A stretch of 32,556 nt of DNA from a virus: positions 1 through 32,556 of IMG/VR virus record IMGVR_UViG_3300008259_000095; one strand, given 5' to 3'. This document shows positions 18,822-27,145 of this stretch, one piece after another. The notes under the pieces are model-generated. The model ran no database searches. It was given only the letters and a program-made list of their open reading frames with translations, and had not been told where the DNA came from. A program made the position numbers and the translations under genes. Position 1 is the stretch's first letter. Every line of letters starts with the position of its first letter.

Positions 18822-19060
18822 TTTTCGTTATGTTTATCTGTTAAAAAATCTATGAATTGCTTTTTATCGCCATAATTGATGTGGCATTGTCTGCATAGTG
18901 CCATAATGTTTCTGATGTCATCTGCCCCTGCACTCCCTCCCATACCCCTACATTTGATATGGTGTATATCAACTGCGACTGAGTTGCATACTTCACAAAG
19001 TATTGTATCTGATACATCATAGCCGAAATAGTTAAAATAAATTTTAGTGTGTTTTTTCAT
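18806..19060 (-). CDS. HNH endonuclease
   Basis: An 84-residue HNH nuclease. It has a zinc pair Cys22-x2-Cys25, the DIHHIKCRG catalytic strand (His33, His34), Asn51 of the N position, and the second zinc pair Cys56-x2-Cys59 followed by His60. Small HNH proteins next to terminase genes assist DNA cleavage during packaging in HK97-like phages, and this one lies two genes upstream of terS. A homing role is possible but less likely, since nothing is interrupted. It overlaps the methyltransferase stop by 17 nt. Confidence 0.9.
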   Translation of the reverse strand: MKKHTKIYFNYFGYDVSDTILCEVCNSVAVDIHHIKCRGMGGSAGADDIRNIMALCRQCHINYGDKKQFIDFLTDKHNEKCNSR

Positions 19061-20189
19061 AACGCACTCCGTTTCTTTTTATTTCTAATGTAGGATCAAG
19101 TTGCAGCATCCTGTCAACAATTACCTGACAATATTTAGGATCTAATTCCATCCCGTAGCATTTGCGTTTAAGTTGATGAGCAGCGACCATTGTTGAGCCT
19201 GAGCCAAGAAATAAATCCAATATTGTTTTTGATTCTTTTGCATATTCATTTATGCACCAATCAGCTAATGCAATCGGCTTTTGTGTTGGATGTACTCTTT
19301 TTTCGCCCATCTCACTACCTTTTATCATTCCATGCCATTGATGTCTAAATACATCTACTTTAACTCCTTTATTTACAAAAGCTAATTCTGCACCACTAAA
19401 AGTATCTCCTTCTCTTTGCTTATCCCAAACTAACCAACCAAATCCATTTGGTAAACAAGATGAATAATAATTTGCTCCCCAAAATATCATTGTTGCATCG
19501 CTAAATAAAGATTGACACAAATTAAAAGCATCTACTGCAACTGTTACATCATTATCTCCTAATATCTCACCAAAATCATTTTCTTTAGCATTACCTTTAA
19601 TTCCTTTACCACTATGTGAGATTCCATAAGGAGGGTCTGTGAATACCATATCTGCTTTCTCTCCATTCATCAACTTTGCAACTGAATCTGAATCAGTTGA
19701 ATCACCACACAACAAACGATGCTCGCCTATTTCAAATAAATCCCCTATAACTATATCCGTTTTTATTTCATCAGGTATATCAAAATCATCCTCAGCCGCC
19801 TCTAATTGCACGGGTTTGAAATCAGGAATATCTAAACCCCATTCTGTTAATTGTATTTCATCCCAATTATTAGCGATGTCATCCCAATCCCATTCCCCAT
19901 AGCCTATATTATCTTTAATAACAAACTCCTTTCTTTTTTCCTCAGTCCAATCATCAGCCATCAAAACCCAGTTATCAGGTATTTCTTTGTAGTCTAATTC
20001 CTGCAATGCCTTTAATCTCATATTACCGCCTAATGGATATATTTTACCATCTACATCGGTAACGCATACCATAGGTCTTTTTTCAATCATTTCAGGAAAA
20101 TCCTTTATTGACTGAACTAACTTTTTGAATTTTTCATCCTTGATGATTCTCGGATTCTGAGGATTGCTTTTGATTTTTGTTATTTTCAT
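19044..20189 (-). CDS. ParB-like domain fused to a DNA methyltransferase
   Basis: A 381-residue two-domain protein. Residues 1-90 form a ParB/sulfiredoxin-like domain with the box GGNMRLKAL (54-62). A linker leads to a beta-class DNA methyltransferase with DPPYG (185-189, catalytic motif IV). HPTQKP (300-305) and the SAM-binding motif FLGSGS (327-332) come afterwards. That order (IV before I) is the beta class, which makes N6-methyladenine or N4-methylcytosine; DPPY favours adenine. It probably protects phage DNA from host restriction, with the ParB-like part aiding DNA binding. Its start lies 56 nt inside the preceding gene. No partner restriction enzyme is present. Confidence 0.9.
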   Translation of the reverse strand: MKITKIKSNPQNPRIIKDEKFKKLVQSIKDFPEMIEKRPMVCVTDVDGKIYPLGGNMRLKALQELDYKEIPDNWVLMADDWTEEKRKEFVIKDNIGYGEWDWDDIANNWDEIQLTEWGLDIPDFKPVQLEAAEDDFDIPDEIKTDIVIGDLFEIGEHRLLCGDSTDSDSVAKLMNGEKADMVFTDPPYGISHSGKGIKGNAKENDFGEILGDNDVTVAVDAFNLCQSLFSDATMIFWGANYYSSCLPNGFGWLVWDKQREGDTFSGAELAFVNKGVKVDVFRHQWHGMIKGSEMGEKRVHPTQKPIALADWCINEYAKESKTILDLFLGSGSTMVAAHQLKRKCYGMELDPKYCQVIVDRMLQLDPTLEIKRNGVRYEKTH

Positions 20190-24072: not shown

Positions 24073-24357
24073 TTAAACTTTTATTTTTAATATTTCCAAA
24101 ACATCTTCAATTTTTTCTATAATATGCACCTGCCCCATCCACCCGGTGTGAAATTTAACCTCTGATTCTGTTAACTTTTTCTGCGATGCAGATTTTTTGC
24201 CGTCCTTAATCTCAAACAGATAATTAATGCCTCTAAACCCTACAACGATATCTGGAAATCCTTTTCCTATTTCGTGCGTGCTAAATACTGAGGCAAATGG
24301 TATATGCCTGATTTGGTCAATTATCTGCTTGTGGTTTGCATCTGTTCTTTTGATCAT
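24073..24357 (-). CDS. VRR-NUC-like nuclease
   Basis: A 94-residue protein with the PD-(D/E)xK core GKGFPDIVVGF (about 31-41), YLFEIKDGKK (about 46-55) and the trailing helix containing TESEVKFHTGWMG. The GFPD...EIK order is typical of the VRR-NUC family of small Mg-dependent nucleases. These may act as Holliday-junction or branched-DNA nucleases in phages. Located just after the Mom-like gene and before the sigma-like gene, it would be expressed early to middle. It ends 9 nt before the next start. There is no fused helicase. Confidence 0.85.
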   Translation of the reverse strand: MIKRTDANHKQIIDQIRHIPFASVFSTHEIGKGFPDIVVGFRGINYLFEIKDGKKSASQKKLTESEVKFHTGWMGQVHIIEKIEDVLEILKIKV

Positions 24358-24926
24358 TTATTTTTTTTTAACAACTCTCTTTTTTTTGAATCAAAATAAT
24401 AAATAAATCTCTTTTTTGGCATATCATCACCTATATAAATATGATTTTTATTTGCTGTTCTTTGGTATATTACTTTTTTATTTGTTCCAGCATATTTTTT
24501 TACTTTTCTACTTTCACCATCATAAACAAAATTTGATGCTAAATAAATTGTTCCTTTATGACCTTTATTTGAATCTGACCAAGTTACAACACCTTCATAT
24601 TTTGGATATTTCTTTTTTAATGATTTTAAGCATTTTGAAATAAACCAACTTTCTGTATTTGTTTTGTATTCATCATTAACCCACATTCTACTAAACTCTA
24701 TATATTTTCCATCGTATTGAATCCTACCATTTGAAAAAACTGCGGCACCTATTGCATTATACAAATTTTTTTTATTAAATAATCCATAAATGCAAAGTAT
24801 TCCAGCAGGCATAGATTTTAAGTAATGATGTGTTAAAAACAAGTGCTTAACGCTTTCCCATCTACATTCCTCAAAAACACAATCTCCATTTAATATAGAA
24901 TTATGTAATTCTTTTTGATTGATCAT
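24354..24926 (-). CDS. Mom-like adenine hypermodification enzyme (GNAT-fold)
   Basis: A 190-residue protein of the Mom family, which in phage Mu converts adenine in DNA to N6-carbamoylmethyladenine and so blocks many restriction enzymes. Visible marks are HHYL (33-36), EFSRMWVND (77-85), and VTWSDSNKGHKGTIYLASNF (114-133), which has the W-x-D, G-H-x-G-T-I-Y and A-S-N-F positions typical of Mom. The C-terminus is a Lys-rich basic tail. The gene is visibly richer in A+T than its neighbours (many T and A runs), hinting at acquisition by transfer. Substrate sequence and partner proteins are unknown; no Com-like translational activator is seen. Confidence 0.8.
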   Translation of the reverse strand: MINQKELHNSILNGDCVFEECRWESVKHLFLTHHYLKSMPAGILCIYGLFNKKNLYNAIGAAVFSNGRIQYDGKYIEFSRMWVNDEYKTNTESWFISKCLKSLKKKYPKYEGVVTWSDSNKGHKGTIYLASNFVYDGESRKVKKYAGTNKKVIYQRTANKNHIYIGDDMPKKRFIYYFDSKKRELLKKNK

Positions 24927-25633: not shown

Positions 25634-26321
25634 TGTTAGTGGTTTTAAGTTCAAAAAATCCCTTCCATCCGTTTGCGATGGATTGGTTGATTATTTCTAT
25701 CGCATTTGATTCTATGTTGTTTGAAAGTTTGGCTAATTGATTCAAAGATAATTTTTCTGATGATCCTGTTTTATATGTAAACCTATGGCAATTTTTTTTG
25801 TAATCTTTCCACTCATTCCATTTTTTAATAAAAATATCTGAGTTGAACGGATAATCTAAATTTTCAAAAATTTCGCTTTTATTAATACTTATATCTTTAT
25901 CCTTATCTTTATCCTTATCTTTAATAGTTTCGTAACTATTATCTAATGGTTCTGTAATCATTACGTAATCATTACTGAATAGTTCACTAACTAATTCTAA
26001 AAGGTTATTTTTTTTCAGTTCATTAACCACAGAAATTACCGCAGGTTTTTTTGAGTTTAGCGTTCCATATTGAAATTTCAGGAACTTTGGAATAAACCAT
26101 ATGTTATTGATTTTCAAAACTCTACCGCTCATTATCTCAATTAAAACTTTCTCATCTATTGAGGTATTGCACATCATATTCATCAGGTTAATTGATGGCT
26201 TGCATATCCCTGCGTGATTACAATTATCCAGTAACCATTGCCAAATGATTCTGTAATCATTGCTCAATGATAGATACCAATCATCTTTCCATTTTTCGGT
26301 ATCTGTGAATCTCTTAGCCAT
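25584..26321 (-). CDS. Replication-initiator-like (replisome organizer) protein
   Basis: A 245-residue protein starting at ATG 26321 (MAKRFTDTEKWKDDWYLSLS), preferred over an upstream ATG at 26336 because AAGGAGG lies five bases before it. Residues 1-105 form a winged-helix-like N-domain with a WQWLLDNCNHAGICKPSI segment, characteristic of phage replication organizers. A repeated Lys-Asp linker (about 135-144), encoded by a 12-bp tandem repeat, joins a C-terminal domain (about 150-245) with WKDYKKNCHRFTYKTGSSEK and a conserved-looking IANGWKGFFELK end. It probably binds an origin and brings in the helicase or loader. An origin inside this gene, as in lambda O, is possible. Confidence 0.65.
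   Translation of the reverse strand: MAKRFTDTEKWKDDWYLSLSNDYRIIWQWLLDNCNHAGICKPSINLMNMMCNTSIDEKVLIEIMSGRVLKINNIWFIPKFLKFQYGTLNSKKPAVISVVNELKKNNLLELVSELFSNDYVMITEPLDNSYETIKDKDKDKDKDISINKSEIFENLDYPFNSDIFIKKWNEWKDYKKNCHRFTYKTGSSEKLSLNQLAKLSNNIESNAIEIINQSIANGWKGFFELKTTNNADRIESVVNWANQFQ
25892..25923 (-). repeat. 12-bp tandem repeat inside the initiator-like gene
   Basis: TATCTTTATCCT appears twice in full (25892-25903, 25904-25915) and then eight more bases (25916-25923). It encodes the Lys-Asp linker of the initiator-like protein. Lambdoid origins are iterons within the O gene, so this site is a candidate for initiator binding. Simple codon-repeat expansion is the alternative. Confidence 0.75.
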
Positions 26322-26529
26322 TTTTACCTCCTTCATTTTTTATTTTTTGTAGTTCAAATTGCAAATCCAAAATAAATTTTTCAAAAGTTACTAAATCCAA
26401 ATCTAATTCAAATTGACAATCACTTTTATCTTCATTATAAAATCCAATACATATTTCATTATCTCCTATATAATGGAAATCAATTGATTTTTCAAAATTT
26501 CCATCTAAATAGAATTTTTCCGTTGGCAT
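26314..26529 (-). CDS. Hypothetical acidic protein
   Basis: A 71-residue acidic protein (start MPTEKFYLDGNFEKSIDFHY) with a beta-rich first half and an amphipathic C-terminal helix ending in a basic KIKNEGGKNG tail. I do not recognise the family. The gene follows a terminator-like hairpin (26541-26569) by only ten bases and has no visible Shine-Dalgarno. Readthrough or an alternative structure may therefore control its expression. It overlaps the initiator-like start region, so the two genes may be coupled. Confidence 0.55.
   Translation of the reverse strand: MPTEKFYLDGNFEKSIDFHYIGDNEICIGFYNEDKSDCQFELDLDLVTFEKFILDLQFELQKIKNEGGKNG
26327..26333 (-). promoter_or_regulatory. Unusually strong Shine-Dalgarno before the initiator-like gene
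   Basis: AAGGAGG on the coding strand, five bases upstream of ATG 26321. Most genes in this phage have A-rich leaders without such a site, as in Bacteroidota. This one fixes the start and may make the initiator-like gene strongly translated. Confidence 0.65.
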
Positions 26530-26530
26530 A

Positions 26531-26569
26531 AAATAAAAAAGGGCTGCATTGGTAGAAGCAATACAACCC
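26531..26569 (-). terminator. Terminator-like hairpin before the 26529 gene
   Basis: On the minus strand GGGTTGTATTG (26569-26559) pairs with CAATGCAGCCC (26551-26541), two positions being G-U wobble, over an 11-bp stem with a 7-nt CTTCTAC loop. It is followed by TTTTTTATTT (26540-26531). The next gene starts two bases beyond. The loop is exactly complementary to a 7-nt stretch in the next upstream hairpin loop. Confidence 0.8.
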
Positions 26570-26586
26570 TTTGAGGTTTGAAATAA

Positions 26587-26618
26587 ATTTCTTCTCGCCT
26601 TCTACATCGTGAAGAAAT
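26587..26618 (-). ncRNA. Upstream hairpin with a loop complementary to the terminator loop
   Basis: ATTTCTTC (26587-26594) and GAAGAAAT (26611-26618) form a perfect 8-bp stem with a 16-nt loop. On the minus-strand RNA the loop contains GTAGAAG (26605-26599), the exact complement of the seven-base loop CTTCTAC of the terminator hairpin (26558-26552). The pair could form a kissing interaction and act as an attenuator, or be part of a small RNA. Conservation has not been tested. Confidence 0.45.
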
Positions 26619-26641
26619 CTTACGCTAATATACAAAAAAAT

Positions 26642-27145
26642 CTACAATCTACTCAACGAGTTATGCACACACTTAACAACAATCTCAGATAAAGTAATAT
26701 CCGTTTTTTTTGACTGAGCAAGCATATCGTAAAACATCGTTTCAGGGATATCTATCAGGATTTTCTTATAACATTCATTATCCTTTACACGCTTTGATAT
26801 TACGTGATTATAATAATCTAAATGCCTATAAACGCACAAATGCAGATGTTCCAGTTTGTGCCTCATATCATCGTAAACATCTAAATACTTTCTCATCTCA
26901 TCACGTGCGTTAATTACAGATGAATGATGCCTCCCGAATAAATAACCTATCTTTTCAATCGTTAAATCTAAACGTCTATTGTTTAGCAGTAAATCGTATA
27001 TCATCATCCTGCCCATCACATATTCTTTAACCCTTCCCTTTTTAGTTATAGTGTTCGGATTAAGATTAAGATAAAAAGAGGCAATGTGTATTATATCTGA
27101 TGGCGTGTAAACGCTTGTGTCGTCTTGCTCTAATGGATGCCTCAT
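26642..27145 (-). CDS. DnaA domain IV-like protein with a C-terminal ribbon-helix-helix
   Basis: A 167-residue protein. Residues about 12-85 look like DnaA domain IV, the origin-binding part of the bacterial initiator: a helical stretch VMGRMMIYDLLLNNRRLDLT, then IEKIGYLFGRHHSSVINARD (64-83). The signature GRHHSSV replaces the usual GRDHTTV. There is no AAA+ ATPase. A helical linker follows, and the last 44 residues (CYKKILIDIPETMFYDMLAQ onward) look like a ribbon-helix-helix of the Arc/CopG type. Both ends would bind DNA. It may sequester host DnaA boxes, mark the phage origin or repress early genes. It is coupled to the upstream small gene by 4 nt. Confidence 0.7.
   Translation of the reverse strand: MRHPLEQDDTSVYTPSDIIHIASFYLNLNPNTITKKGRVKEYVMGRMMIYDLLLNNRRLDLTIEKIGYLFGRHHSSVINARDEMRKYLDVYDDMRHKLEHLHLCVYRHLDYYNHVISKRVKDNECYKKILIDIPETMFYDMLAQSKKTDITLSEIVVKCVHNSLSRL

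What the first reader, a model, noticed from the sequence alone, without database searches (positions are those of the whole stretch)
26541..26618. Two adjacent hairpins with perfectly complementary seven-base loops
The terminator hairpin at 26541-26569 has the loop CTTCTAC, and the hairpin at 26587-26618 has GTAGAAG inside its 16-nt loop, an exact seven-base match. Together with the T-rich tail just before a gene start, this looks like a kissing-loop attenuator, pseudoknot or a small RNA, sited between the DnaA-like gene and the small gene upstream of the initiator. I know of no described element like it.
Basis: seen in the sequence. Interest (0 to 1): 0.7.

Follow-up and report, generated by a model that had tools for sequence, protein, structure and literature searches.

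The report
Phage small RNA with kissing loops
A group of uncultivated phages, probably of Bacteroidota bacteria, carries a tiny (~90-base) RNA gene whose two hairpin loops are always exactly complementary, even though the loop sequence keeps changing from phage to phage, which shows that evolution is preserving a loop-to-loop contact in an RNA that no RNA-family database describes.

Summary
On the minus strand, between a DnaA-HTH gene and the next ORF, lie two hairpins whose 7-nt loops are perfectly complementary (GUAGAAG / CUUCUAC). I collected 27 distinct homologues (window included) from related uncultivated phages. In 26 tabulated members the loops show 14 different heptamers, and 182 of 182 loop pairs are Watson-Crick. 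About 27 paired substitutions are inferred on a tree, all compensated. Loop 1 of one phage never fits loop 2 of a phage with a different heptamer (0 of 620). The match is confined to the hairpin-2 loop (plus at most one base), which fits a kissing contact better than an alternative helix. The element is bounded like a gene: a Bacteroidota sigma-A -7 box (TAnnTTTG) puts the predicted start 1-3 nt before hairpin 1, and hairpin 2 is an intrinsic terminator. No Rfam family matches; strict searches of ~790 bacterial genomes found none. It is a new phage RNA family, ~90 nt, self-terminated and probably locked by a kissing loop. Function is not shown: most likely a stable sRNA whose terminator also throttles the downstream (often replication) genes; attenuator, putRNA-like or intermolecular-assembly roles remain open.

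The parts
26625..26632 (-). -7 promoter box TATATTAG (Bacteroidota sigma-A consensus TAnnTTTG); predicted +1 at about 26620
   Evidence: TAnnTTnG at the same offset in 18/18 aligned members and in the 26 tabulated members (the table required it). T at -6 in 21/26 and no G at -10/-9 were not selected for. One later member, L192, has TATCTTTA. Spacing T-12..G-5 from PMC6847099.
26654..26656 (-). TTG of a candidate -33 element (positions about -36 to -34)
   Evidence: T enriched at -36/-35/-34 across 26 members (20, 17 and 15 of 26)
26530..26620 (-). predicted ~90-nt RNA, from promoter start to end of U-tract
   Evidence: promoter spacing, terminator, fold z -4.2, covariance-model hits in relatives
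26587..26618 (-). hairpin 1 (10 bp plus one A.A mismatch; 10-nt loop 2+7+1)
   Evidence: 9 of 10 pairs covary in 17 distinct sequences, 95.9% of cells paired
26599..26605 (-). loop-1 heptamer GUAGAAG (kissing partner)
26573..26586 (-). 14-nt single-stranded linker UUAUUUCAAACCUC between the hairpins
   Evidence: about 11-24 nt in relatives; contains a small extra hairpin when stem 2 is short
26538..26572 (-). hairpin 2, 14-bp intrinsic-terminator stem with 7-nt loop
   Evidence: terminator scan; 12 of 14 pairs with double changes
26552..26558 (-). loop-2 heptamer CUUCUAC, the whole loop of hairpin 2
   Evidence: 182/182 Watson-Crick pairs with loop 1 in 26 members
26530..26537 (-). U-tract (UUUAUUUU) that abuts the next start codon
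26642..27145 (-). upstream gene: DnaA domain-IV-like HTH protein (PF08299, E 7e-8), almost always upstream of the RNA
26314..26529 (-). downstream gene (71 aa, unknown); its type differs between relatives while the RNA stays

Best explanation
It is a phage-encoded small RNA gene of ~90 nt. The host sigma-A RNA polymerase starts 1-3 nt before hairpin 1. Hairpin 1 caps the 5' end, loop 1 captures the 7-nt loop of hairpin 2 as it emerges, and hairpin 2 plus the U-tract terminates transcription. The default product is a compact RNA with both ends in hairpins, held by a 7-bp kissing helix. Two consequences are inferred: the RNA is stable and acts as an sRNA, and the terminator limits transcription into the downstream module, so only read-through reaches those genes. 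SHOWN: the sequence anatomy, covariation of both stems and of the loop-loop helix, the conserved promoter box and terminator, and the linkage to the DnaA-HTH gene. INFERRED: transcription, that the loops kiss within one molecule, stability, and any trans target.
For: Loop helix: 119/119 cells paired and 6/7 pairs covarying on an alignment made by a model that does not pair the loops. On 26 members: 14 heptamers, 182/182 Watson-Crick, 0/620 cross-fits. About 27 compensated changes on a tree. The match stops at the hairpin-2 loop edge on one side (continues in 1/26) and runs on by one base on the other in 18/26, as a kiss allows; an antiterminator would be expected to run on. -7 box at a fixed offset with spacing as in PMC6847099. 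Full-length folding gives hairpin 2 in all 26 members. Downstream gene type varies while the promoter-RNA-terminator unit is retained, which suits an autonomous RNA gene.
Against: No transcript data. The RNA always abuts the next start codon, which also suits a cis leader. In L057 the unit is absent between the DnaA-HTH gene and an initiator-like gene, so it is dispensable. Linker reach is borderline for a straight intramolecular rod (roughly 92-101 A against 72-96 A at 6 A/nt in most members), so bending, fraying or an intermolecular kiss is needed. In nascent RNA lacking the terminator's 3' arm, the loop1-loop2 helix often out-competes hairpin 1, so a kinetic switch is possible.
Confidence: 0.6

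Rival explanations
1. Cis attenuator of the downstream (often replication) module: the kiss tunes how fast or how efficiently the hairpin-2 terminator forms, and the RNA itself has no trans role. Another copy of the RNA, an RNA-binding factor or translation could shift the balance.
For: Promoter, leader and terminator sit directly before a start codon in every member examined. In many members the loop1-loop2 helix is the most stable nascent structure before the terminator's 3' arm emerges. The downstream genes are frequently initiator-like or helicase genes.
Against: No conserved antiterminator seen: hairpin 2 folds at full length and complementarity stops at or one base past the loop edge. 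The downstream gene type is not conserved.
Confidence: 0.25
2. putRNA-like polymerase modifier: a nascent two-hairpin RNA at the start of an operon that binds RNA polymerase and makes it resist pausing and termination.
For: Same address and size class as HK022 putL: two stem-loops right after a promoter, ~70 nt (PMC9378689).
Against: Hairpin 2 is itself a U-tailed terminator; no conserved unpaired core was seen; no evidence of polymerase contact.
Confidence: 0.08
3. The complementarity reflects a DNA-level inverted repeat bound by a dimeric protein such as the neighbouring DnaA-HTH protein.
For: The heptamers form an inverted repeat 47-53 bp apart beside a DNA-binding-protein gene.
Against: Both heptamers lie in the loops of two independently covarying stems. 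The repeats do not resemble DnaA boxes, and promoter and U-tract frame an RNA.
Confidence: 0.03
4. Ordinary terminator plus a chance upstream hairpin.
For: Terminators are common in compact phage genomes; weak model hits such as L144-L148 are just that.
Against: Covariation and the chance controls exclude it.
Confidence: 0.01

Closest known systems
HK022 putL/putR RNA (PMC9378689)
   Same: Phage RNA of two stem-loops; putL is immediately downstream of an early promoter; similar length
   Different: putRNA is an antiterminator; here the second hairpin is itself a U-tailed terminator and the conserved feature is exact loop-loop complementarity
ColE1 RNA I / RNA II kissing loops (from general knowledge)
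   Same: Fully paired 7-nt loops; linked to replication control; loop sequence can vary while complementarity holds
   Different: There the loops are on two antisense RNAs; here both loops are on one sense RNA and no antisense gene is evident
phi29 pRNA (from general knowledge) and GOLLD/ROOL (PMC12286853)
   Same: Phage RNAs with covarying kissing loops, which in those cases are intermolecular
   Different: Different sizes and folds; multimer formation is untested here; not beside packaging genes, and no tRNA gene in the window
P4 CI / P1 C4 immunity RNAs (from general knowledge)
   Same: Small phage RNA from the leader region of replication genes with internal complementarity
   Different: Those are processed antisense regulators with separate target boxes; no such target was sought here

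Membership tests
Any described RNA family (Rfam 15) | score at or above a family's gathering threshold | tested here: not met
   0 matches in the window. With relaxed E-values the best hit is DapZ at 22.6 bits against a threshold of 56; 13 relative loci gave nothing near threshold.
Promoter-driven, self-terminated sRNA gene | host-type promoter at the 5' end | tested here: met
   TAnnTTnG -7 box placing +1 at 1-3 nt before hairpin 1 in 18/18; L192 carries a one-base variant; consensus and spacing from PMC6847099
Promoter-driven, self-terminated sRNA gene | intrinsic terminator at the 3' end | tested here: met
   weaker U-tract in the L073 group
Promoter-driven, self-terminated sRNA gene | discrete transcript observed | not testable with these tools
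   no RNA-seq of these phages is available here
Kissing-loop RNA | loop-loop complementarity kept by compensatory change while both stems persist | tested here: met
Kissing-loop RNA | physical loop-loop contact | not testable with these tools
   needs probing or a structure
HK022 put RNA | antitermination through RNA polymerase beta' zinc-binding domain | not testable with these tools
   needs in vitro transcription
HK022 put RNA | two stem-loops directly downstream of an early promoter | tested here: inconclusive
   two stem-loops directly downstream of a promoter box; whether the promoter is an early one is unknown
Riboswitch or attenuator with alternative structures | conserved mutually exclusive (antiterminator) helix | tested here: inconclusive
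   loop1-loop2 helix dominates many nascent folds but hairpin 2 is present at full length; no other alternative helix was tested by covariation
phi29-type pRNA | intermolecular loop-loop assembly into a ring on the packaging motor | not testable with these tools
   covariation cannot tell cis from trans kissing; linker reach is borderline

The most novel reading that the evidence does not exclude
The two loops pair between molecules: the RNA is a self-complementary, self-assembling (dimer or chain) phage RNA whose diversified heptamer is a recognition code. Such an RNA could sense its own concentration, and so phage copy number, to set termination before the replication genes and to distinguish one phage type from another.
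Probability: 0.12. Interest if true: 0.85.

Novelty: new variant of a known kind. Interest (0 to 1): 0.62.

Why it matters
It is an undescribed structured-RNA family in a group of uncultivated phages of probable Bacteroidota hosts, where phage-encoded regulatory RNAs are little studied. The loop-loop covariation is unusually clean (14 heptamer variants, no unpaired loop position). It gives a minimal natural system in which loop swaps can directly test what a kissing loop does to a terminator or to an sRNA, next to replication genes.

Tried and rejected
Search of the cultured-phage collection with the window's DNA and DnaA-like protein found nothing. DnaA-HTH relatives in cultured Flavobacterium phages (Muminvirus, Hattifnattvirus) and gut phage scaffolds carry no such RNA in the regions read; the one model hit, in L173, is a plain terminator. 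The DnaA-like profile found no relative in bacterial genomes. Model searches of 396 and 395 genomes of the terminase host's family and class gave two weak hits, both plain terminators without kissing loops, and the filters there were strict. Weak R2 hits L144-L148 and L156 are plain terminators without hairpin 1 and were rejected. A relaxed descriptor gives chance hits (16 in 1.5 Mb of random sequence, both strands), so only the strict forms are used as evidence. DnaA boxes beside the promoter: perfect in the window, L015 and L114, near-matches in some others, not consistent. Search for trans targets of the RNA was not attempted: 7-mers and a short linker are too weak a signal without expression data.

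Full report
WHAT IS THERE. All the genes around the finding run on the minus strand. Read in that direction: the DnaA-like gene ends at 26642; a box TATATTAG lies at 26632-26625; hairpin 1 is 26618-26587 with loop AU-GUAGAAG-G; a 14-nt linker follows; hairpin 2 is 26572-26538, 14 bp, with loop CUUCUAC; then UUUAUUUU and the ATG of the next gene at 26529. Folding energy is -27.5 kcal/mol, z = -4.2. The sequence has no Rfam match.

COVARIATION. Six relatives found through the DnaA-like protein (two share the same element) and the window already carried three different loop heptamers, each matched by its partner. A covariance model built only from the two hairpins, with the loops left unpaired, was run over 50 whole records of phages related by terminase. 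It found 12 further strong hits. On the model's own alignment (17 distinct rows) the loop-loop helix is paired in 119 of 119 cells, all Watson-Crick, with six of seven pairs changed on both sides; sliding the partner by 1-3 columns gives 12-76%. Later searches with a second model, an initiator-like protein and a structural descriptor gave more members, 27 distinct in all with the window. Of these, 26 are tabulated: 14 heptamers, 182/182 Watson-Crick pairs, and no heptamer of one member fits a different one (0/620). A parsimony count on a tree of the RNA with the loops masked gives 27 paired changes over all seven positions, equal in both loops. That tree is from ~90 nt and is rough; the count is an estimate.

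SELECTION IN THIS SET should be stated. The 26-member table and the descriptors demanded exact complementarity and (table, second descriptor) the -7 box, whereas the first 18 members and L140-L142, L165, L166 and L192 came from models or proteins that demand neither. L192, found last, has exact loops but TATCTTTA in place of the box. The models do carry loop sequence preferences, so very different loops could be missed. Weaker model hits (E above about 1e-5) are plain terminators with no hairpin 1 and are not counted.

KISS, NOT AN ALTERNATIVE HELIX. The match is confined to the seven bases that form the whole loop of hairpin 2. It extends further in 1 of 26 members on one side and by one base in 18 of 26 on the other. 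An antiterminator would be expected to run on into the stem. Loop 1 is typically 2+7+1 nt and loop 2 exactly 7. In the most diverged member (L054/L163) stem 1 has shrunk to about 5 bp and stem 2 grown to about 21 levels, yet the heptamers still match. Where stem 2 is only 9 bp (L073 group, L100) the linker contains an extra hairpin. Whether the loops kiss within one molecule is not decided: a straight stacked rod of 92-101 A needs an almost fully stretched 11-15-nt linker (2.8 A per level and 6 A per nt are my assumptions). Bending or fraying makes it possible; a dimer would also satisfy the data.

A BOUNDED RNA GENE. In 18 of 18 aligned members a TAnnTTnG box starts 10-12 nt before the model start. 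Published mapping in Flavobacterium johnsoniae places this element at -12 to -5 (PMC6847099), so transcription should begin 1-3 nt before hairpin 1. Features that my pattern did not select, namely T at -6 in 21/26, no G at -10 or -9, and T-richness at -36 to -34, agree with the published consensus. The 3' end is an intrinsic terminator. The predicted product is about 90 nt with both ends in hairpins.

CONTEXT. The upstream gene is a DnaA domain-IV-like HTH protein (PF08299) in nearly all members; L108 has another gene there. Of 20 loci with a gene of this kind in the terminase set, 17 carry the RNA (16 by descriptor, plus L077, which the descriptor missed and which is member L112); L057 lacks it, and two weak hits (L104, L106) are probably unrelated. 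The downstream gene varies: small proteins, a Lin1244_N protein, 'MAKDPAFLFY' initiator-like proteins, an SNF2-type helicase, an HNH-like protein (the last two names of type are by sequence reading or Pfam as cited). The start codon nevertheless always follows the U-tract closely. Terminase relatives in bacterial genomes are in Chitinophagaceae, which agrees with the promoter type and suggests Bacteroidota hosts; the host of the window itself is not known.

MECHANISM. I favour a self-terminated, kiss-locked sRNA whose terminator also limits read-through into the next genes. The default state in full-length folds is the terminator, the upstream linkage is tighter than the downstream one, and no conserved antiterminator was seen. 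The alternatives, an attenuator tuned by the kiss or a putRNA-like element (PMC9378689), are not excluded. Nascent-chain folding shows the loop-loop helix can form before the terminator closes, which would let the kiss act on termination kinetics. No trans target was searched for.

STANDING. No member was found in cultured phages or in about 790 genomes of the terminase host's family and class, the latter under strict filters. Seven full-text literature searches turned up no described element of this kind in the papers listed; most subscription papers are not held. The family is new as far as these tools reach; the kind of thing (a phage sRNA or leader with a kissing loop) is not, hence 'new variant of a known kind'.

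Noticed in passing
window 25892-25923: Perfect 12-bp tandem repeat (TATCTTTATCCT, 2.7 copies) inside the O-like replication gene, encoding KDKDKDKD; a possible iteron/origin inside an initiator gene.
   Followed up: no
window 26661-26669: Perfect DnaA-box-like TTATGCACA about 48 bp upstream of the RNA start, at the end of the DnaA-HTH gene; L114 has TTATCCACA at a similar place.
   Followed up: partly
window 26642-26760 (C-terminus of the DnaA-like protein): The window-type DnaA-HTH protein is longer than the other families' versions, with a C-terminal extension (KKILIDIPE..FYDML..S.KTDITLSEIV) that looks like a second small DNA-binding domain.
   Followed up: no
L144, L145, L146: Plain strong terminators with nearly identical AAAAGGGTGGTGCAATAAACACC-type hairpins shared between phages of this group, without kissing partners.
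   Followed up: no
window 24354-24926 and 19044-20189: A Mom-like DNA modification protein and a DNA methyltransferase that also matches ParB-like families in the same phage, suggesting DNA modification.
   Followed up: no
L073, L079, L080, L083, L100: In the group with a short stem 2, the linker carries an additional small hairpin.
   Followed up: partly
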